From the NCBI GenBank assembly GCA_008802785.1, contig VUYT01000004.1:744001-808000 (forward strand): a stretch of 64,000 bases of DNA, written 5' to 3'. Positions 3,499-60,737 of this stretch are shown piece by piece (the first letter of the stretch is position 1; each line of letters begins with the position of its first letter). Below the pieces are notes generated by a model, which worked only from the letters and a program-made list of their open reading frames with translations, was not told the origin of the DNA and did no database searches. A program made the translations under genes and the position numbers. The DNA comes from Symmetrospora coprosmae (lineage: Eukaryota; Basidiomycota; Cystobasidiomycetes; Symmetrosporaceae).

Positions 3499-4221
3499 CT
3501 ACTGAGCCTTCTCCTTCTCCTTCACAGTGCTGACCTCATGGACCTCCGGCTGCGATGGTCCAGCATTCGATGTCTCCGCGTACACGGGCGGCGCGCTTAC
3601 TCGACGGTCCACATTGGCCCATTCTGCAGTCCCGGCCATTGAGCCTTGCAACGGATCAATCTCCTCCTCTCCACTCGGAAGTGGAGGCGTGTAGAAAGCC
3701 AAAGGGCTGCGTGCGTGGTCTTCCGCTGCCGGAACATGCCATTGAGCATCCGTCGGCGTAGGCGCTGCAGGTGGGGCGACCTCCGAGAATGGTCTGACGT
3801 TCTTGGAGAGCTCGGTCTGAGAAGACACTCAGCTCACGCATCTCTGATGCATCACTCTGGCTGCCTCACCTTCACACCGAGCTCGGCATCCCTCTGCTTC
3901 TTGCGGCTGCGGAACAGCAAGAAGAAGGCGTAGATGACTCCGCCGAAATAGCCTGTATGTTGCTGCGTTAGCGACCGCGTCAGTCAAGGCCGATACAGCG
4001 CGCGCACTCACCGAACATCAGAAGAAGCAGGCAGAGCGCTGCCTCTACTCCCCACCCGTCCGTCATCACTGCCACGGCAGGCGGGAACACAAAGCACAGC
4101 TGTCGATGCACAAGCTAGATCAGCAGGGTCTATGTATCGGTTGAGCAATGTGCAATATATTTACGAGCGTCAGCATCCAAGTAGGACGTGAGCGTGTTCC
4201 ATCCATGTGGCTGTAGTCCAT
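3499..4221 (-). CDS. PMP3/UPF0057-like proteolipid A, divergent, with long proline-rich tail
   Basis: Four exons: complement(4165..4221), (4012..4099), (3870..3952), (3499..3816); 181 aa. The start ATG (4219-4221) lies in CGCCACCATGG, a very good context. Residues ~15-62 align with the PMP3 two-helix proteolipid: hydrophobic LCFVFPPAVAV, short loop, then ALCLLLLMFGYFGGVIYAFF, matching the family scheme LPPLxV..LT(I/V)LGYIPGxxHAxY. The usual Cys/Gly loop is replaced by MTDGWGVE and the central PG by GG. A basic stretch follows (FRSRKKQRD), then a ~105-residue Pro/Ser/Glu tail not found in classical 55-aa PMP3. Family members are small plasma-membrane proteins affecting membrane potential and salt sensitivity. 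Two introns sit exactly where introns of neighbours B/C sit (before the PP motif, and in the G of LG-Y), which indicates tandem duplication. Its own function is uncertain. Confidence 0.78.
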
Positions 4222-4621
4222 GGTGGCGTTTCACAGGTTCGGTTGAAGTTAGATCTGCGAGACGTGTGCGTCGAACGAAGCGCATGCAACAGTGGTTTTG
4301 GAAAGAACACAAAAGAGGTAGCAAAGCCACGGAACACCTCTCTGAGAATAGAAACCTTCGTCTGACGCTCGTCATCCCTTCGGAGTCACTTTCGTCACCG
4401 ATATACAGTCACCAATCACAGCCCGTTTGGCGAGATCCAGATACGGCCATTGCACATATTGATTGATTCGGAGCTCTCGTTGCTCGTGTGTGTGTACAGA
4501 GCTCGTCCCAAGCAGAAGCGGGTTTGTTACAGTCACTCATGCATCCATTAGGGGCGGTGGCGCACCGTATGCGCAGGCATCACAGGTCTGCCAGAATGCG
4601 ATCTCTCTGATACAACTCCTC
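4222..4621. other. Intergenic between PMP3 paralogues A and B
   Basis: About 400 bases holding the promoter of the divergent proteolipid gene A and the 3' UTR of gene B. No further coding or RNA signal seen. Confidence 0.5.
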
Positions 4622-5261
4622 TTAGATCTTTGCACCAGTTGCGTAACCCTGAGGCTGTTGCTGGTAGTGCGGCTGGTGCTGGACCGGCTGCGCAGGGAAG
4701 GCCGCTTCAGGCGGAGGAGCGTAGCCCTGCTGCGGCTGGACATGGCCGTGGCCATGAGGCTGGCCTGGCTGATTGACGACGACGTAGTGATTAGGCTTGC
4801 CATGCTGTATGTGAGACAGTCAAGGGGAGAAGGCGTCTCGTCAGTGCATGGTCTCGGCACCATCCGCCACGTAGCTGCACCCACGCTGTGACCATTCCTG
4901 GCATTGCTGAGGTCTCGAGCCTTTGCTTGTCGATAGACGAGCCATATCGCGTGGATGAGACCAGGAATGAAGCCTGTAGACCATGGCCAGGGTGAAGAAG
5001 CGTCAGTCAAGTCCGTTAGAACGACATGAGCTCGGAACGCTCAAATACCTAGGATAGTGAGCAGGACGTTCAAGCAGAATTGCGCACCGCAATTATCTGT
5101 TAGAAGGGCTGTGACGGGCGGCAGGAAGAATGCTATGATGATGAGCAGAAGCTGCCAGGTCCGACCATGTCTGGGATCAGCCCTCCGCCAGCTGGACCTG
5201 GTAGAACGACCCTCGCGGGAGCGGGCAGTCAACGTACATCGGAGGCGTTGATGTCTGCCAT
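4622..5261 (-). CDS. PMP3/UPF0057 plasma-membrane proteolipid B with Gln/Pro-rich tail
   Basis: Exons complement(5238..5261), (5049..5151), (4885..4973), (4622..4804); 132 aa. Exon 1 codes only eight residues (MADINASD). Residues ~9-70 are a clear PMP3 domain: LLLIIIAFFLPPVTALLTDN, a loop with two Cys, NVLLTILG, GFIPGLIHAIWLVY. The ~60-residue C-terminal tail (HGKPNHYVVV... ending GYATGAKI) is Gln/Pro/His-rich and soluble, as in many fungal long PMP3 relatives. The domain predicts a small two-helix protein of the plasma membrane linked in yeast to membrane-potential and cation tolerance. The LG|GFIPG intron is at the same codon and phase (1) as in paralogues A and C. The last intron uses donor GTGGGT, chosen because it alone keeps the tail in frame. 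Confidence 0.9.
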
Positions 5262-5653
5262 TGCTGTTACTGGGGTGACTCTGTGATGCTATCGTTGCTG
5301 TCCTGGAGCGGAGGAGAGGGCCGTCGCTTTGGGTCTTTGCGGTGCACCAAGCCCGCTTGATGACGTACGCAACTAAGGGTCACGTGAGCGGGCGTTGGAG
5401 TCGTCGGACTCCGTCGGACTCCTCAAGCCGGAGCTGTGCAACTGCAACCTGGCCGGGGCGTAATCGTATGCGATTGACAAGACAAGAGAAGCCGTGGGTC
5501 AGGGCTCTGCCAGATGGGCGAGACGATGCTGAATTGCCGGACATCTGGGATATTGGCTGGCTACATGAAGGGCAGGTGACTGCAGGATCTGATCCGGGCG
5601 ACAGGCTCTGGAGCATGATGGCTATGGCGGGCATCAAGCACGTATGGAGCGCA
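5262..5653. other. Intergenic between PMP3 paralogues B and C
   Basis: About 390 bases with the promoter/leader of proteolipid gene B and the 3' UTR of gene C. Nothing else supported. Confidence 0.5.
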
Positions 5654-6417
5654 CTAGGCGTTGTTGATCGTGCCGTAGGTGTGCGTACCGAGAGGAGGCT
5701 GTGCTTGTCCACCTCCGTACTTTGGCCGGTAATCGCCCTACAAGCAAGCGAGTAAGTCTTGAGGTCAACCGGAATCTCCGACTGTCTTGCAAACGTGCTT
5801 CAATACAAGATGACTCACGTTGCCGAGGTATTCGACGTTGTCGAGGCCGTATTGCTCCTCCGCCTTGCTCTGCCAGAATCAGACGTCAGAAGGTCAGCAA
5901 AAGGCGATCATCCGAAAGCAGGCCGAGAGAGCGACCCACCTTCTTGTAGATGAGCTGAACATCAGGGAAACGTCCAGTGAACAGCTTCAGCAAGGTCAGG
6001 AAAGCTCGTGTACCTGTCAGGGACCTACGTAGAATGCGTGGATCTGACGTTAGCGGGGAGGTAAGAGGTGGGGAGAAGGACGGGGACCATCAGCATGCGT
6101 GTACTGCAGGCATTCAGTGGAAACAGCCGTACGTGGCCGGGAATGTAGCCTGTGAGACGGTCGATGCTTCGGTGGGTCAGTGCATGAGACATGCCGAGTG
6201 CCGGGTGCGACAGCGTGCGCACCCAGAATGGTAAGCGCGATGTTGATGATCAGATCACACGTGCAGCAGCCGCTCATGATGATGACTGAAGCAGGCGGCA
6301 GCAGGATGGCCACCTGGCGACCCGAAGTGGATGGAGGCGGTTCAGTCACGGGTCTCGCCGCCCAGCGAAGTGCACGGAACACACCAAGATGAGGATGAGA
6401 TTGGATGCGGTAGACAT
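5654..6417 (-). CDS. PMP3: PMP3/UPF0057 proteolipid C, seven exons including two 15-nt exons
   Basis: Exons complement(6385..6417), (6223..6313), (6133..6149), (6029..6043), (5940..5954), (5819..5869), (5654..5737); sum 306 nt, 101 aa. The protein reads MSTASNLILIL, VAILLPPASVIIMSGC, CTCDLIINIALTILG, YIPGH, IHAFY, LIYKK, then SKAEEQYG and a GDYRPKYGGG tail: a textbook fungal PMP3 with tail. Each exon edge has GT..AG and the conserved string GYIPGHIHAFYLIYKK is only rebuilt if the 17-, 15- and 15-nt exons are all used, which is strong evidence for them. The tail resembles the soluble tail of fungal SNA2/SNA3-like members. It acts at the plasma or vacuolar membrane in relatives. Third of three neighbouring PMP3-family genes on the same strand. 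Confidence 0.93.
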
Positions 6418-8823: not shown

Positions 8824-11800
8824 CTAGATGTACTGCGCGAGACCAGCGGCCTGAATGCGATCCTGCGGCAGAGCGCGGACGAGCTCGAGCAGCTTTGCGT
8901 GCGTGGAGGCAGCAAGCGGCTGGCCGGCCTCGGTCTTTGCGGTAGTCTGCGTGTTGAGCACTTGCGCAAACACAACGAGGAGGTGGTCCAGGTTATTGAT
9001 GAACGTCTGGTTGCCTGACGACGCGAGCTGGAAGAAGAGCTCGAACAGCACGCTGTACGGCTCGTAGTCCTGCTGAAGGGGCAGAGCCGAGATGACAGGC
9101 GGGAGCACCTGGTCGACAGGGACCGCGCCCTGGTTCTTGAGCATCAGCCGGGCGATAGCACCACAGGCGTTGTCTCGCGCTCGGAGTGTCTCCTTCTTGT
9201 CGTCCGCAACGGTGAAGAGACCCTGCAGCGAGCCGAAGATCTGGCCGAATTGCGGCGAGAGGTCGGTCGATGATGCCTGAACAAGGCAGCCAGCAAGGAA
9301 GGCAGCGTTGCTCTTGACCTCGGAGTCTTCGTCGGCCAGACCTCGCACGGCAAGCTCGAGCAGCTGCGGGGTGTACGAAGTGATGGCAGGGCCCATGGCC
9401 TCAGTCACCTCGGCGAGGGCGCCGATAGCGGTCGAACGCTCGGTGGAGGTCCTCGATGGGTGCTTTGAGTGGTGGAGGCTACGGTCAGCCACGGACTTAC
9501 ACGCAGCGGGCGTTCGCAGAACTCACGTAGTACTTTGCCATCTCCGGGTAGAAGGATCCGAAAGCCTGGCCGAATTCGCCTCCCAGCGCCTTTGCAAGGG
9601 CAGCAACGAGATCGCATGCAGAGCAGATGAGCAGAGCATCGTACTCGGACTGCTCTGTTGGCTGCTCCTCCGGCGTTGGCTCGTCATCCTCGTCAGCATC
9701 GGTGTCGAGCTGGCAAGGCGCCTTCTTTTCCAGGATTTGCAGAACGAAGTGGCAGATGGTGTCGAGGTCTGATGGTCCAATGATCAGTCTCATCCCTGAA
9801 CGGGCGTATCGCGTGGATACTCACAGTTCGGCACGACGATGCCAGGGCCGAGCTTTTCGACAAGGACCTGGAAGTCCTCACAGAGCGAGTTCACAACATC
9901 CCGGTCGTCCTCCTCCTCCCACATCTCGATCACCTTGGGCATGATGGCTTCGATGAGTTGGTTGAGCTCGCTCGGGAACGCTTCAGGCTTGATGCCTGGC
10001 GTCCACTTGGGCAGTCCCGCCATGTCATGGTAGGTCGCGATGAAGCTGAGCAGGGTCGTGGCCGCCGCCTTGCGGATACCGTCCCAGAAGTGCTCGAGAA
10101 GAATGAGAAGCTCCTTCACGACCGACTCGACGTACGGCAAGAAGTGCTGCTTCGTCGACCGGAAGATCTCAAGGAGCGAGTCGGTGGCAACCTCCTTCTC
10201 GATGGCAATGGCCGAACCGGTGCTGAAGTCAAGGTCGTCCTCGTCCAGATCCTCCATGTCGACATAATCGTCGTCCTCGTCGTTGTCCTCGGACTCGCCC
10301 TCTGGCTTGGAGGTGAAGCCATTCTCTGCGACATCGTGCCTAGTCAGCTTCCACGACGCCGCCGGACATGCGAGTTGCTGGCGTGGCTCACCAGTCAGAG
10401 CAAGAGTCTTCTCCTCGTCCGTCTCGGGCACCTCAGACTGAGCCAGAGACGCAATGAGGAGGGGCATGACAGTGGGAAGAAGCGGGGCGAACTCCTCGCC
10501 GTAGACCTTCGTCATGACGGCAAAGTAGATAAATGAGCACTCTTTCAGGCGCGGGTTGTTGAGAGCGGTGGCCTTGAAGGCGAGCTCCATCGTGGTCTGG
10601 TAGTACGGACGGAAGACCTCCTTGCCGACAGCTTCGGCGAGAGTGCCGACGGTGTCCTGGGTAACGCCCCGCAGGTCCGTCTTTGTGCCCTGCTCGCCAG
10701 TCTCGCCTTCCTCAGGCTGGAGCTCGAGGAAGGGAGTGATGCGCTGCATGGTTGCCTCAAAATATGGGACAAACTCCTCCTTGGCGGCGTGGGCGGACGA
10801 GCCAATGGCACCGACGGCAATCGACTTGAGCTTGATCGGCGCCGAGTCGAGCATAGAGATGAGTCGCTCCATGAGGGTAGGGAGGTACTGCACGATGGTC
10901 TCGCCAAGGCATTCGAGGTAGGCATCGAGAGCGATCATCGCGTAGCGCTGCGTGCCGACATCGTTGATAAGGTTCGAAATGAGCTGAGAAGGCGAGCAAG
11001 CGGGTGTGTCAGTGACGCAAGGTCAGTTGGGTACGCGCACTTCGCCACCTACTGGCAGGAGCGTCTCGTGCTTCTTGGCACAGTCGTCGGCGAGCATGTC
11101 GGTGAGGCACATCAGCGCCTTGCATGCCGCGTTCCTGACGATGAGCTCCGGGTCCTGCAGTGCCTTCTCGAGGTATGGCCAGAGCTGCTCGAGGTGAGGC
11201 TGAATGTAGAAGGATACGCCCTCGACAGTGACACCGAATGCCATGATGGCCGACTTGCGCATGTTGGGGTCGCTCGAGGCGCAGTACTGCTGGAACAGCT
11301 GGAAGAGAGGCGGGAAGACGTGCGAGGGCGGCAGGTTTGTCGCGAGTGCGTCGAGGCACTTGAAAGAGACCTTGCTGGGCGAGTCGCCCTCGTCGTCGTC
11401 GTCGACATCTTCGGCCTCAGCGCCGATGGGGAGCAGACCCTCGATGATGGTCTGCGACAGGTTGAGCGACTGCACACGCGACTTCTTGAATTTGATAAGC
11501 CAGACGAGCGAGTTGAGCGCCATGACTCGTGCATCATCACCGTACGAGGCGTTGGCAGCGGCCATCAGCTGGAACTTGACGAGCTCGCCAAGGTGAGGCG
11601 CGAGGTAAGGGACGTCCTGCAGATTAGAGAGTAAGTGGCTATCAGCAAGCGTTCTCTGAGCATGCGCTATAGGTCGCGAAGATGCACAATGTAAAGAAGT
11701 GTCTCGAGCACGTCGAAGCCGTGCTTGACGCCGTCCTGGTCGCCCGCCTCGAGTGCCTGACCGAGGACTGCGACCATGTTGGGAACCAACGACTGGACCG

Positions 11801-13010
11801 CAGCGACCTGCTCCTTGTCCTCTGCCTCGATGTATCCCGCAATCTTGCCCAGCGATCGCAGCGTAATGATTCGGATGCCGAGATTCTCCGGGTCGTTCAG
11901 CGTCTTCTGGAAGAGGGTGAGCAGATGAGGCAGCTGAGAGGTGAAGTCCTCCAGCACGATAGTGTCGAGGATGCAGAAGAGAGTGTAGAGACCGATCTGA
12001 TGTATATTCCAGGTAGCGTTAGCACAGCTTGCGCTGCATAGGGCGAAGGAGATGGCTACTCACCTCTCTTACGGCCGCGTCGTTATCGGACGAAGCCGCC
12101 CAGAGCCAGCCGAGAAGCTCGTTCCATTGCCTGTTGTGGTCCGCGGAGACACGTTAGACAGGTACGACGATGGAGGCAGCGAAGGCCTCAGCGAGGAACG
12201 GGCCTCACTTCTCTGGGATTTCAATCTTTGCAATGGCAGCGACGAGCCGCGAGGTGGCGTGCCTGACGAGGGGAGCGCTGTTCGAGACAAGCAGAACTGT
12301 CAGACAGGAACATGGACAACCAAGACACCGATCGACACGCACGTTGCGGCTCCGGATGCGAGGCCCTGAAGCAGACCGGCCTTGATCTGGCTCCTCATGG
12401 TCGGAGTCTGTTTGGCCCAGAGCTTTGCCTTTCCAGACCCGACGCGCTTCCGCATCTCGACAGCCGCGAGCTGCTGGATCTGGGGACCCACCAGCGCGAG
12501 ATGTAGATGCGTCAACATTGCTGCTCCCTTTTCCCCTTTGTCTAGCATCGTCCGTCGCTCACGGTCGTGTTCTGGCTGGTCTGGAGGATCTGGAAGAGGG
12601 CGGGCACGCATTTTGGCGACTTGTAGAATTGCTCGTTGAGGACCTTAGTCGCCTGTGTGCGGTAGTCATGTCGTACGTAGACAGTGCGCGTCGACAACAA
12701 AATTTGTGAGCGGCAGAGGGGAGGACGCGCGATAGTGGAGCATGGAGGGGCTCAGCATCTGCCCTCGTGTGCAGCAGAGCGGCGATAGCGGGAGAAAGGC
12801 GAGTGCGCACCTGCTTGATGGTCTCGGTGTTTGGTGCGAGAGTCCCTTCGAGGGCGGCATTGAGCTGCTGCACGTACTGCATCTGTGTGCCGAATGCATG
12901 TGCATGAACGTCAGCACGCGTCCGCCCGCTATCGTCCTGGGGCGCCCGAAGTACAGCGACAGCAGCAGCAGCAGCAGCGACTGGATCCAGCTCACATCGA
13001 TGTTGGCCAT
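8824..13010 (-). CDS. KAP123: Importin-beta family karyopherin Kap123 (importin-4)
   Basis: Twelve exons: complement(12996..13010), (12811..12882), (12563..12652), (12343..12479), (12209..12277), (12064..12130), (11688..11996), (11053..11616), (10392..10983), (9825..10325), (9527..9768), (8824..9462); 1098 aa, the usual length. The chain is HEAT repeats throughout, with N-terminal IQQLAAVEMRKRV (importin-beta N domain), repeats such as VRNAACKALMCLTDML, an acidic insert (EDNDEDDDYVDMEDLDEDD, ~690), and the Kap123/IPO4 hallmark EKEVATDSLLEIFRSTKQHF. It carries ribosomal proteins and histones H3/H4 into the nucleus by binding Ran-GTP. Exon 1 encodes five residues. The intron at 10326..10391 is 66 nt, stop-free and in frame, so a contiguous reading would add 22 residues. 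The last intron uses an AAG acceptor. Lies immediately beside NUP85. Confidence 0.95.
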
Positions 13011-31002: not shown

Positions 31003-33345
31003 ATGTTGACCAAGGGAGAGGTCGAAGGTCAACGGACGACACGCTCAAAGTCGCACGCTGTCGCGCAGCCTGGGTGAGCGCACTCATCATTGTCGCTGCT
31101 GCCGTCACTTGCAGCTGGGTCGGGTCGGGCTCCGTCGGTCCCGTGCGAGAGCTGGCCGTTGACACTGGCACTCCCGTACCCCCGCCGTCCCTCCTGCTCG
31201 CCTGCATGGCGCACGAGCACAGTCGAGCGCCATGGTACACTATCGACGGCAAGCCTGTCAACGCCTATGTCATCGGGATAGCCGGAGGTAGCGCGAGCGG
31301 CAAGGTGAGCTCGTGCAAGGCCAGGCCAGGTCGATCGGGTGGAGACGCGCATGCACGAAGCCACGGCAGAGGCTGAGCAGGCGCATTCCCTATGCTCCCT
31401 GCTGTCTCCCACTGCAGACACGAGTCGCCTCGTAGGTCGCTCCCCCGTCTGCTGTCCTTCCAAGCCCAGGCGGGACTCGCTCATCCCGCTTATCGGCTGC
31501 TTGTGCCTGTCTGCGAACCCACAGCGAGATCCTCAAGGCTCTGGACGCCCCTTCTGTACTTGTCGTTTCGCAAGACAGCTTCTACAAGTCCCTGACGTCC
31601 GAGCAGAGCAAATCAGCCTTCCGCAACGAGTACGACTTCGATTGCCCGGCAGCCTTTGACTGGGAGACACTGCGCGACTGCACCTCGGACCTCAAGCAAT
31701 GTCGATCTGTCGAGATCCCTGTCTATTCATTCGTCTTACATCAGCGTACCGAGGACACACAGTATCTCTACGGCGCAAGCGTCATCATCCTCGAAGGCCT
31801 GTTTGTCCTGTCGGACCCAGAGCTGCGCGACCTCATGGACATGAAGATCTTCGGTGCGTGGGCATTGATTTCTCGTGATGATGCGCGCGTTCTGCCCCTG
31901 ACCAGCTGTACCATATTTTCACCCCTTCAGTCCAGTGTGACACGGACCTCATGCTCGCCCGTCGGATACAGCGCGACACGGTGGAAAGAGGGCGTGATGT
32001 TCAGGGTATCATCTCGCAGTACTTGACGTGTGAGTGTTTCTCTCAGGCGACACGCGACTCGAAAGTGCGCCAAGCTAACCGAGACGGTCTACAGTTGTGA
32101 AACCTAGCTTCGACAACACCATTTTGCCTACTTCCCGGCACGCCGATGTGGTGAGTTAGCGTCTGCTCTCTCTCTGCACTAATGCCTGGCTGACAATCGG
32201 CGTTCCGCTCGCAGATAGTCCCAGGAGCGGCCAACACCGTCGCTATAGACCTCATTGCAACGCACATTCGGCGACAGCTGAAAGAGCGCGAATTGAGTCA
32301 TCGCAATACTCTGCCTGGCTTCGTCAAGCAAACTCATGCCCTAGAAGACCTACCTCCTACTGTCAAGGTGCTAGAACAGACTGCCCAGTTGAAGGTGGGT
32401 TGCCGGTCTCGCCTTTTCCCGTCCGGTTATCCTGACACCTGATTGCTCTGTGCGCAGGGTATCCATACCATCCTGCGGGACAAGGACTGCTCAAGGGAGG
32501 ACTTCATCCATTTCTCAACGCGCCTGTCGACTGTCATCGTTGAGGAGGCGCTCAAGATGCTGCCCTACTCGCCGCAATCCGTGGAGACACCGACTGGCTG
32601 CAACTACGATGGGAAGAAGCTGGAGATCAGCGTGGGTATGGCACTCTGGCGTGCCGCTCTCGGCTCATGCTGATGCTGTGTCTACCCTATGACTCAGCTA
32701 TGCGGCGTCTCTATCCTTAGGTCCGGCCAATGCTTCGAAAAGGGCTTGCGTCGTGTTCTCCAGGACGTTATTCTCGGGTCACTGCTTATTCAACAAGACG
32801 ATGAGTCTGGCGAGCCGCTCAACTTCCACACTGCGCTGCCACCCATCCTCAAGAAGCGGCAAAGCGCTAGCGAGGCCTACGTTCTGCTATGCGACTCGCA
32901 GATCGGGACTGCTGCAGCATGCATCATGGCCATTCGGATCTTGCTAGATCACGGCGTTCAGGAGGATCAGTGGGTTGTGCATTATCGCCTACACCGAAAA
33001 GACGGAAGCTAATGACGCCGCTCCCGCCCGCAGCATCATCTTCCTCTGCTTCTTGGTAGCACAGACTGGCGGTGTTCACGCAGTTGCGACGGCCTTTCCG
33101 CGCGTGCGGATAGTCACGTCTGCGGTCGACCCTACCCTGGAAGAGCGGGCGCTGCCCATTCGCGAGGTGGACCCCATCACCGGCGCGCATCGCAACCTCA
33201 CAAAGAAATGCTGGGCTATCCTCCCAGGAGGTGAGCACGCGAGACCTGAGTGTGGCAGCAATCTCGCCAGGGCGCCATAGCTGATGCTCCTTTTCGCGCC
33301 TGATCAGTGGGCAACTTTGGCAACCGCTACTTCGGTACCAGCTAG
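31003..33345 (+). CDS. URK1: Uridine kinase with C-terminal uracil phosphoribosyltransferase-like domain
   Basis: Eleven exons: 31003..31073, 31115..31304, 31418..31431, 31525..31853, 31931..32029, 32095..32150, 32215..32394, 32458..32631, 32698..32969, 33034..33230, 33308..33345; 539 aa. The Walker A is GGSASGK-T (81-88), followed by SVLVVSQDSFYKSL, NEYDFDCPAAFDW, a lid with RRIQRDTVERGRD and FVKPSFDNTILP. The second half is a UPRTase fold: GIHTILRDKDCSREDFIHFSTR, LCGVSILRSGQCFEKGLR, HIIFLCFLVAQTGGVHAV and C-terminal GNFGNRYFGTS. Such UCKL/URK fusions phosphorylate uridine and cytidine for pyrimidine salvage; whether the UPRTase half is active is unclear. Exon 3 is 14 nt and codes TRVAS right after the P-loop Lys, so its inclusion is needed for both the P-loop Thr and the frame. 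Confidence 0.93.
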
Positions 33346-55017: not shown

Positions 55018-55877
55018 TCAGTCTGTACGGTGACGCAAGAGCAATCAGTAGGTGCGCAGTAACCACAGCTCTAATGCTCCCTACTCACACTTGAGAATCT
55101 GTTGCCGAGGCAAGGGGGAGGGCAGACGATGGTGAGAGAAGGCGGTCAGCTCTCGATCAACGATGGTCGAGAAGTCTGCATAGAGGCTTAGACCGCGTAC
55201 GATGTAGAGCGCGTGGATCTGTGTAATACAGGGATCAATGGTTAGCGGGCCGTCCTTTGGTGTCTGCCTCGGAAGGGCGAGCTGAAGAGAGGCGACTCAC
55301 GATACCGGGAATGTAACCGAGAACCGTCAACAGGATGTTGATGAGGACTGTAATGGCGAAAATTCAGCCGCGGTGTCTCATGGCCACGTTGTCGTCTCAG
55401 GGCACGCACAGTCGGCACCGCAACCACGCTCAAGGAAGACACCAAGAGGTGGGCTGTAGAACGGACGAGAACCACATCAGCACTCCATCTCGTACGTTCG
55501 CGCTGCTGAGGCTTGCTGATCCACTTACAGGATGATGGCGAGAATCTGTAGGCATCACGACCACGCAGCGGAACAAGGTCCGGTCGGACGGAGAAGACGT
55601 CAGCGATGCGGTGCTGCAGATCCTCCCCATGTGCTGCGGCAGCGCAAGCAGCCTGGTAGCGCGACACCAGCGAATCAAGCTCACGATCTTGCAGATGTCT
55701 GGTAGCAAGAAGCAGGTGCACCAAGCGGGTCAGCGCCTATCCTCCCGCATTGCGCCAAGCGGCTGGGCTGCTTGCTGCTGTTGCTGCTGCGCTGCGTGGC
55801 CATCACGAAAATGGCTCTGCGCAGGGAGCGAGCAGGAGCAAGCGGACAGGTCCCTCACCTCCCCCGGTGAAAGCCAT
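55018..55877 (-). CDS. PMP3: Canonical PMP3 plasma-membrane proteolipid, 57 aa in eight exons
   Basis: Exons complement(55859..55877), (55685..55698), (55529..55545), (55410..55453), (55301..55347), (55201..55218), (55089..55098), (55018..55022); lengths 19, 14, 17, 44, 47, 18, 10 and 5 nt, sum 174 = 57 codons plus stop. The spliced protein reads MAFTGGDICKI, ILAIIL, PPLGVFLERGCGAD, FLINILLTVLGYIPGI, IHALYI, ILKY-stop: the classical PMP3 from start to ILKY end. Every junction is GT..AG, and no shorter set rebuilds the family sequence, so confidence is high despite exon size. PMP3 proteins are two-helix plasma-membrane proteolipids; yeast pmp3 loss hyperpolarises the membrane and raises sodium sensitivity. 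Here the last coding exon supplies only the end of a Tyr codon and the stop. Confidence 0.93.
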
Positions 55878-59667: not shown

Positions 59668-60209
59668 GGTCGATCCCGATTGCTCGGGTCGGATGTGTTT
59701 GATGGAGCGGATGGAGCGGATGCATTGCACGTGCACGGGATGTATGGGGTATCAAGGATCTAATATCCATCAGTAAGCTTCCTCCGAATGTAGCTATAAG
59801 TTGCACGCCAGCGCGCGTAGCCGACTTCAGTCTCCGATGGGCTAGTTGAGTAATCTGATCCGCGCACATACACGCAGAGGGGCTCCAAGATAGTACGAAG
59901 GACGACCAGCGTCCCTGCCAGAGCACTCTTAGTGCAGTCCAATAGCGCGGCGAGGCAGGTAATTGTCCCGAGATCGATGAGCAGGGTCCCGGGGCTATAT
60001 TCTAGACGGTGGGCTCGGTATTTTCCAATCCTTCGACTCCTCCTTTACAGCTTTAATGCGGGTATTTCCGCATTGTAGCCTCGTGGTCGCTGTGAGTCTG
60101 AAAAATGCCGCTGATCACTTTAGCTCCATCGCCAGTGGCTATAGGGTTCTACGTCAGCGTCGCTAATGCAGATCCGCATATGCCGGCACAGGCAGTTGCA
60201 TATCGAGAC
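59668..60209. other. Intergenic between convergent genes
   Basis: About 540 bases with a short GGATGGAGC-type direct repeat near 59702-59722. Nothing else supported. Confidence 0.45.
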
Positions 60210-60737
60210 TTACGCTCTACTTTCCGACTGCTGGAAATATGAGCTGGAGTGGGCCAAAGGAGACAGGGTTAGACAATATTCGTCCTGATCGAGCGGGATC
60301 GCTGGCTCACGCTTTCGCTCTCCTTGACGTCGGCCTGCCTTGTTCTCCTGGTATATCTTCTCGAGTTCAGCCTGTCGGGCTTCTCTTACCATCTCAGTCG
60401 CGCCAATTGTGATCCGAGTCGCAGGTGGACGCGGAAGAGTCTCGGGAGGACTGTTGAACGGTCGAGGATCGCGTCTGATGCCTTCCTTCTGCATCTGCGG
60501 CCTACCGCCTGATTGCGGAACCTGCGACTGCACTGGGATTTGAGTCGGGTTGAGAGAGGAATCAGGTCCAACGCGTCGAACGTATTCGAGCCATTGACGC
60601 CGAAGACGCCCAAACCCACGTTGGCTTTTGGTGCCAAATTGGCGGACTGGCACTGCGCCTGAGCGAGAAGCCTGTTGGAGAGCAGTCCCTGCCTGCCTTA
60701 CTTCATTGGGTCTACTCACTTTGCTGCCCATGACGCG
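60210..60737 (-). CDS. Possible small basic protein, weakly supported
   Basis: An open frame from the ATG near 60735 begins MGSKVSRPNEV and runs to 60210. It contains QFGTKSQRGFGRLRRQWLEY, a Pro/Gln-rich middle and EMVREARQAELEKIYQENKAGRR, which reads like a real amphipathic helix. A GTGAGT directly after MGSK and an acceptor about 62 bases later suggest the first exon may be MGSK only, giving a mitochondria- or membrane-type small protein. I do not recognise it; exons and even coding status are uncertain. Confidence 0.3.
   Translation of the reverse strand, partial: RVMGSKVSRPNEVRQAGTALQQASRSGAVPVRQFGTKSQRGFGRLRRQWLEYVRRVGPDSSLNPTQIPVQSQVPQSGGRPQMQKEGIRRDPRPFNSPPETLPRPPATRITIGATEMVREARQAELEKIYQENKAGRRQGERKREPAIPLDQDEYCLTLSPLAHSSSYFQQSESRA

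What the first reader, a model, noticed from the sequence alone, without database searches (positions are those of the whole stretch)
55018..55877. A 57-residue protein cut into eight exons, down to 10 and 5 coding nucleotides
Canonical PMP3 is rebuilt only by joining exons of 19, 14, 17, 44, 47, 18, 10 and 5 nt. More than 75% of the coding span is intron. The final coding exon contributes two bases of the Tyr codon plus the stop. This is an extreme case of intron gain in a tiny gene and a stress test for the exon-definition limits of the fungal spliceosome; automatic annotation would likely miss the gene.
Basis: seen in the sequence. Interest (0 to 1): 0.75.

Follow-up and report, generated by a model that had tools for sequence, protein, structure and literature searches.

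The report
Tiny fungal gene in eight exons
A 57-amino-acid membrane-protein gene of a fungus is read from eight short pieces separated by seven ordinary introns; the structure is well supported and unusually dense, but tiny exons are already known in fungi, plants and animals.

Summary
On the minus strand, coding exons of 19, 14, 17, 44, 47, 18, 10 and 5 nt (55877-55018) join into an intact 57-residue Pmp3 (PF01679, 91.5 bits); 79.8% of the 860-nt span is intron. Support: a database protein from a 1186-nt contig is 57/57 identical; spliced alignment to a Russula Pmp3 scores 262 against at most 99 in controls; a homology-free gene finder trained without this window returns exactly these exons in 3 of 3 trainings. 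No transcript of this species was available. All seven introns are GT-AG with splice scores inside the genome's range; 5 of 7 have a CTNAY branch word. At 40 introns per kb of coding sequence the gene ranks first of 112 predicted genes (mean 2.4). Three other enzymes here carry microexons of 3, 14 and 16 nt. An extreme member of a known kind.

The parts
55859..55877 (-). PMP3 coding exon 1 (19 nt coding, MAFTGG + G of the Asp codon); 5'UTR not mapped
55699..55858 (-). intron 1, 160 nt, phase 1, GTGAGG...CTGAC...CAG
55685..55698 (-). internal microexon 2, 14 nt
55546..55684 (-). intron 2, 139 nt, phase 0; no CTNAY in its last 50 nt
55529..55545 (-). internal microexon 3, 17 nt
55454..55528 (-). 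intron 3, 75 nt, phase 2, GTAAGT...CTGAT...CAG
55410..55453 (-). exon 4, 44 nt
55348..55409 (-). intron 4, 62 nt, phase 1; no CTNAY in its last 50 nt
55301..55347 (-). exon 5, 47 nt
55219..55300 (-). intron 5, 82 nt, phase 0; same position as an intron of paralogue B
55201..55218 (-). internal microexon 6, 18 nt
55099..55200 (-). intron 6, 102 nt, phase 0; weakest donor of the seven (GTACGC, 9th percentile); no in-frame stop, so retention would give a 91-aa product
55089..55098 (-). internal microexon 7, 10 nt
55023..55088 (-). intron 7, 66 nt, phase 1, GTGAGT...CTGAT...CAG; retention would give a 58-aa product ending ILKCE
55018..55022 (-). coding part of terminal exon 8 (5 nt: AC of Tyr + TGA); 3'UTR not mapped
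5654..6417 (-). paralogue B (Pmp3 domain + tail), predicted exons 33, 91, 17, 15, 15, 51, 84 nt; its 3' end differs between two trainings
4622..5261 (-). paralogue A (Pmp3 domain + tail); exon 2 end read by homology
3499..4221 (-). paralogue D (Pmp3 domain + tail), predicted exons 57, 88, 83, 318 nt

Best explanation
This is a working PMP3 gene (small plasma-membrane proteolipid; role taken from the family) in an intron-rich fungus, probably of the Pucciniomycotina. It carries seven normal U2-type introns packed into 174 nt of coding sequence. Shown from sequence: the exon chain, the intact protein, splice signals within the genome's range, and that other predicted genes of this genome carry exons just as small, three of them backed by homology. 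Inferred: each intron is recognised as a unit (intron definition), so exon size hardly matters for recognition; because two spliceosomes can hardly sit on both sides of a 10-nt exon at once, neighbouring introns are removed one after another and each tiny exon is fused to its neighbour first. The dense arrangement most likely built up neutrally over time, part of it older than the duplications in the Pmp3 family.
For: Protein: Pfam PF01679 over residues 7-55, 91.5 bits, E 3.2e-26; P0001 (jgi, 1186-nt contig) 57/57 identical, the other 119 listed records 82-95%. Structure: exact exon chain from a self-trained gene finder with no homology input, again from three trainings that excluded the window, kept in 9 of 12 cost settings; on 264 kb of reversed sequence 0 short genes with many introns, against 3 in the real window (PMP3, B and one weak prediction that fails the later score filter) and 0 in the real 200 kb. 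Signals: donors at the 9th-80th and acceptors at the 10th-97th percentile of the other predicted introns; CTNAY in the last 50 nt of 5 of 7 introns, 337 of 401 background introns, 114 of 401 shuffled. Genome context: internal exons of 20 nt or less in 10 of 112 predicted genes; of the 8 outside PMP3 and B, 3 were tested (UreG 3 nt, trehalase 16 nt, uridine kinase 14 nt) and 3 of 3 align without a gap across the microexon to solved homologues. Intron definition in fungi: PMC2397502 (passages). Ordered removal around microexons: argued for human neural microexons in PMC10250204 and for a plant 1-nt exon in PMC4674806 (passages).
Against: No RNA data for this species. P0001 may come from a relative rather than this species: paralogue B and the Kap123-like gene have best matches of only 45-69% and 72% (over 60% of its length) in the same database; that P0001 lies on an uninterrupted reading frame is inferred from source and contig length, not seen. 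Introns 2 and 4 lack CTNAY in the last 50 nt. Intron 1 (160 nt) is above the 99th percentile of length and intron 2 (139 nt) above the 95th. The gene finder erred on paralogues A and C, has no minimum exon length, and lost the structure in 3 of 12 cost settings.
Confidence: 0.93

Rival explanations
1. Seven-exon version: intron 7 is normally kept (or is not an intron), so the protein ends ...ILKCE and exon 8 does not exist as coding sequence.
For: Reading through intron 7 gives an almost unchanged 58-aa protein, so splicing it may not be needed for function.
Against: Intron 7 has the best donor of the seven (GTGAGT, 80th percentile) and a good acceptor (74th percentile); splicing gives exactly the ILKY end seen in 10 of 10 relatives fetched (8 under fungal names), including the identical P0001; all four trainings of the gene finder chose it.
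Confidence: 0.04
2. Dead gene: the exons are remnants of a PMP3 gene no longer correctly spliced, with another copy doing the work.
For: Extreme fragmentation; four other Pmp3-domain genes were found in the genome.
Against: No frameshift or stop, 14 of 14 splice-site dinucleotides intact, canonical sequence throughout; the other four are divergent and three of them tailed. The genome search ignores introns, so a second canonical copy cut as finely could have been missed.
Confidence: 0.02
3. Functional splicing control: the microexons and the two mild retention outcomes (introns 6 and 7) serve to switch protein forms under stress.
For: Intron 6 is 102 nt, in frame, free of stops, with the weakest donor of the seven; its retention would give 91 aa; skipping exon 6 would give 51 aa in frame. 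A microexon switch is reported in Trichoderma (PMC11121469, passages).
Against: One in-frame stop-free intron among seven is not surprising by chance (my estimate, not computed); retaining any of introns 1-5 truncates or scrambles the protein; no expression data.
Confidence: 0.06
4. Recent burst of intron insertion specific to this gene.
For: Density far above expectation: 7 introns where 0.42 (genome rate) or 0.81 (rate of eight other short genes) are expected, Poisson 3e-7 and 2e-5; two positions common to other paralogues (36 and 124) are absent here (input).
Against: Position 141 is exactly shared with B (chance of at least one such match 0.29), and 5 of 7 introns lie within 3 nt of a paralogue intron (chance 0.019, a test chosen after seeing the data), which hints at old introns that slid; no outgroup gene structures could be read.
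Confidence: 0.25

Closest known systems
Fungal PMP3 / plant RCI2 / UPF0057 family (Pfam PF01679)
   Same: Sequence, length (57 aa) and whole domain; 82-95% identical to the other listed records besides P0001.
   Different: Gene architecture: seven introns here; all but one of the RCI2 genes of three Brassica species have two exons and one intron (PMC8775908, passages). Gene structures of other basidiomycete PMP3 genes were not available.
Microexons of Cryptococcus neoformans
   Same: Short introns, intron-rich genome, some exons as small as 1 bp, hard to identify automatically (PMC3990503, section on introns).
   Different: That genome has 3.35 introns per kb of coding sequence and a median exon of 194 nt; here four of the six internal exons of one gene are 18 nt or less and the density is 40 per kb.
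Single-nucleotide exons of Fusarium CYP621A and of Arabidopsis APC11
   Same: Exons far below the size that exon definition can serve (PMC12940212, passages; PMC4674806, passages).
   Different: Those are single, smaller exons (1 nt) backed by transcripts; here the exons are larger, several in one gene, and without transcript proof.
Micro-exon genes (MEG) of Schistosoma mansoni
   Same: Genes made almost wholly of very short exons, hard to annotate automatically (PMC10526429, passages).
   Different: MEGs have long introns, encode secreted proteins and their microexons are mostly multiples of three; here introns are short, one of six internal exons (18 nt) is a multiple of three, and one conserved membrane protein results.

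Membership tests
Pmp3 / UPF0057 (PF01679) | Match over the curated cut-off across the whole profile | tested here: met
   91.5 bits against a cut-off of 22.9, profile 1-49 of 49
Pmp3 / UPF0057 (PF01679) | Usual fungal length and end (57 aa, ...ILKY) | tested here: met
   57 aa, same ending as 10 of 10 fetched relatives
Pmp3 / UPF0057 (PF01679) | Plasma-membrane location and role in membrane potential | not testable with these tools
   experiment needed; assumed from the family
U2-type spliceosomal introns | GT-AG ends with the genome's own donor and acceptor preferences | tested here: met
   7 of 7 GT-AG; scores inside the range of 401 other predicted introns
U2-type spliceosomal introns | Branch-site motif near the 3' end | tested here: inconclusive
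   CTNAY in the last 50 nt of 5 of 7
Microexon gene | Several internal exons of about 20 nt or less | tested here: met
   14, 17, 18 and 10 nt, i.e. 4 of 6 internal exons
Microexon gene | Inclusion shown by transcripts of the same species | not testable with these tools
   no RNA reads; only an identical protein from an unnamed short contig
Lineage-specific intron gain | Positions absent from relatives | tested here: inconclusive
   only paralogues could be compared: 1 of 7 exactly shared, 5 of 7 within 3 nt

The most novel reading that the evidence does not exclude
The Pmp3 family of this lineage is a hot spot of intron crowding: the 171-nt domain holds 19 introns over five paralogues (22 per kb, against 2.4 for the genome), with positions repeatedly 2-3 nt apart between paralogues as if introns slid or were re-inserted at the same places, and the 10-nt exon 7 can only be included by compulsory one-after-the-other removal of its neighbours, which the cell may use to tune a stress gene.
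Probability: 0.1. Interest if true: 0.6.

Novelty: new member of a known kind. Interest (0 to 1): 0.35.

Why it matters
It is a compact natural test of how many introns a tiny gene can bear and of how a spliceosome that works by intron definition handles a gene in which four of six internal exons are 10-18 nt. It also shows that such a gene can be recovered from DNA alone when a gene finder has no minimum exon length, and that in this genome 10 of 112 predicted genes have an internal exon of 20 nt or less, so pipelines that forbid short exons would misread them.

Tried and rejected
Rejected: chance assembly of the protein from arbitrary GT-AG pieces; pseudogene (no lesion); the idea that the gene is invisible to automatic prediction. 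Weakened: intron gain as the only history. Considered and left: exon-definition stress, because fungi mainly use intron definition.

Led nowhere: intron positions in PMP3 genes of other basidiomycetes could not be read; no scan of metagenome contigs was allowed, and I did not run scans of viral or prokaryotic contigs, where fungal genes are not expected. In the paper searches that named the family I saw no PMP3 gene structure for a fungus, but I looked at listings only, and at passages of two papers (PMC7394265, PMC8775908); other listed papers were not opened. Short conserved control genes (ribosomal L39 and five other families) could not be fetched because the genome search did not complete; eight other short genes within the 264 kb served instead (10 introns in 2142 nt, counted by hand). 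Paralogue B has no near-identical record. A genome-wide count of a branch-site word was not used.

Limits of the gene finder: 301 predictions, of which 189 (many only a few codons long) were dropped before statistics by score > 8 and coding length >= 120 nt. In one search genes under 450 nt did not enter the coding and splice-site models, but introns of all genes, those of PMP3 included, entered the length and non-coding models; one search left the whole window out. Starting signal weights were set by me (generic fungal, weak). It shortened exon 2 of paralogue A and misread C; the intron positions used for C, and the exon 2 end of A, were read by eye from homology and feed.

Full report
What was claimed and what is there. 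Reading the minus strand and rebuilding it by script gives coding exons of 19, 14, 17, 44, 47, 18, 10 and 5 nt between 55877 and 55018, joined into MAFTGGDICKIILAIILPPLGVFLERGCGADFLINILLTVLGYIPGIIHALYIILKY and a TGA. Seven of seven introns begin GT and end AG, with lengths of 160, 139, 75, 62, 82, 102 and 66 nt; 686 of 860 nt (79.8%) is intron. The coordinates and lengths in the finding are right.

Is it more than chance? First, the joined product is a complete Pmp3 (PF01679, profile 1-49 of 49, 91.5 bits), and a protein on a 1186-nt contig (P0001, jgi) is identical at 57 of 57 residues, while the other 119 listed records are 82-95% identical. A complete frame on so short a contig suggests a spliced transcript, but the DNA of that contig could not be seen, and the donor may be a sister species: other genes of this window have no such close match (paralogue B 45-69%; the Kap123-like importin at most 72% over 60% of its length). 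Second, a spliced alignment to an independent Pmp3 (Russula, P0003) scores 262, 248 and 227 at intron penalties of 3, 5 and 8; the best over eight controls per penalty (window plus strand, both strands of 200 kb of the same genome, three shuffles, two reversed sequences) is 99, 66 and 37. The runner-up on the minus strand of the window (247, 229, 202) is the same gene with another last exon; the rest of that strand was not scored apart. Third, I wrote a small gene finder that trains itself on DNA alone. Trained on the window plus 200 kb it returned exactly these eight exons. Trained on the 200 kb without the window, and on each 100-kb half, it again returned exactly these exons (3 of 3). It kept them in 9 of 12 settings of intron and gene cost and lost them in three settings with the highest intron costs. 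Short genes with many introns numbered 3 in the real window (PMP3, paralogue B and one weak prediction at 60120-60731 that does not pass the score filter), 0 in the real 200 kb and 0 in 264 kb of reversed sequence.

How unusual is it? Of 301 predictions in 264 kb, 112 passed a filter (score > 8, coding length >= 120 nt). They hold 408 introns, 3.6 per gene and 2.4 per kb of coding sequence, with a median intron of 74 nt and a median internal exon of 162 nt. PMP3 has 40 introns per kb and ranks first of 112; paralogue B has 19.6 and ranks second. Internal exons of 20 nt or less number 15 of 305, in 10 of 112 genes; seven of the 15 are in PMP3 (4) and B (3). At the genome rate 0.42 introns would be expected in 174 nt, at the rate of eight other short genes (4.7 per kb, counted by hand) 0.81; the Poisson chance of seven or more is 3e-7 and 2e-5. 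So the gene is an outlier, subject to these being predictions.

But microexons as such are not rare here. Of the eight other genes with an internal exon of 20 nt or less, I tested three against solved structures. UreG carries a 3-nt exon (one Val codon), a trehalase a 16-nt exon and a uridine kinase a 14-nt exon; three of three align to their homologues without a gap across the microexon. The other five were not tested. In print, exons down to 1 bp are reported in Cryptococcus neoformans (PMC3990503, section on introns read), a 1-nt exon in Fusarium CYP621A (PMC12940212, passages) and in Arabidopsis APC11 (PMC4674806, passages); whole genes of microexons are known in Schistosoma (PMC10526429, passages).

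The signals are ordinary. The donors are GTGAGG, GTGAGC, GTAAGT, GTGCGT, GTGAGT, GTACGC and GTGAGT; background introns favour GTGAGT and GTGCGT. Donor scores fall at the 9th-80th and acceptor scores at the 10th-97th percentile of other predicted introns. Five of seven have CTNAY in the last 50 nt (background 337 of 401, shuffled 114 of 401); introns 2 and 4 do not. Introns 1 and 2 are long for this genome (160 nt is above the 99th percentile, 139 nt above the 95th).

Mechanism. A survey of 42 eukaryotes finds intron retention far commoner than exon skipping in fungi and concludes that fungi splice mainly by intron definition (PMC2397502, passages). Introns of 62-160 nt fit that. Small exons are then not a problem of recognition but of room: both neighbours of a 10-nt exon can hardly be handled at once, so one intron is removed first and the exon becomes part of a longer one. 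This is argued for human neural microexons (PMC10250204) and for a plant 1-nt exon (PMC4674806) (passages) and is inference here.

History. Four other Pmp3-domain genes were found: a tandem trio at 3499-6417 in this window (D, A, B) and one on another contig (C, L003). In PMP3 numbering their introns lie after nt 36 (B, C, D), 124 (A, B, D), 141 (B), 21 (A), 86 and 155 (C), 156 and 171 (B). PMP3 has 19, 33, 50, 94, 141, 159 and 169. Over all five genes 7 exact coincidences occur (1 of 20,000 random placements reached that), but PMP3 itself shares only one position, which alone is not significant (chance of at least one 0.29). Five of its seven lie within 3 nt of a paralogue intron (chance 0.019, a test chosen after seeing the data). 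So part of the pattern may be old; the word gain is not earned. Positions in C, and one in A, were read by eye.

Could annotation miss it? It can be lost by a severe intron cost (3 of 12 settings), but a plain finder without a minimum exon length finds it, and complete 57-aa Pmp3 proteins are on record under the names of several basidiomycetes; whether those genes are cut as finely is unknown.

Organism. Best named matches of the Kap123-like protein are Sporobolomyces, Rhodotorula and relatives (46-48%), then Mixia and rusts (44-46%), with other basidiomycetes close behind (only the 7989 candidates sharing most words were scored). I infer a Pucciniomycotina outside the sampled Microbotryomycetes; this is not settled.

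Verdict. Interest is moderate; the decisive missing item is a transcript.

Noticed in passing
window 3499-6417 (-): Tandem trio of Pmp3-domain genes with C-terminal tails (D, A, B); B also has three predicted internal exons of 17, 15 and 15 nt.
   Followed up: partly
G000:C44, minus strand, within C44:1-200000 (predicted exons 373, 161, 3, 23, 58, 174 nt): UreG gene with a 3-nt internal exon (one Val codon), supported by an alignment to solved UreG that has no gap there.
   Followed up: yes
window 31003-33345 (+): Uridine kinase gene with a 14-nt internal exon just after the GGSASGK stretch (P-loop, name recalled), followed in the same predicted protein by a stretch matching uracil phosphoribosyltransferase.
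   Followed up: partly
G000:C44, plus strand, within C44:1-200000 (predicted exons 538, 112, 16, 123, 734 ... nt): Trehalase gene with a 16-nt internal exon in the FREAYYWD stretch, aligned to FREVYYWD of a solved trehalase.
   Followed up: yes
window 55099-55200 (-): PMP3 intron 6 is 102 nt, in frame and free of stops, with the weakest donor of the seven; retention would give a 91-aa protein.
   Followed up: partly
window 8824-13010 (-): Kap123-like importin, 12 predicted exons, at most 48% identical to named records: the genome is from a poorly sampled fungal lineage.
   Followed up: partly
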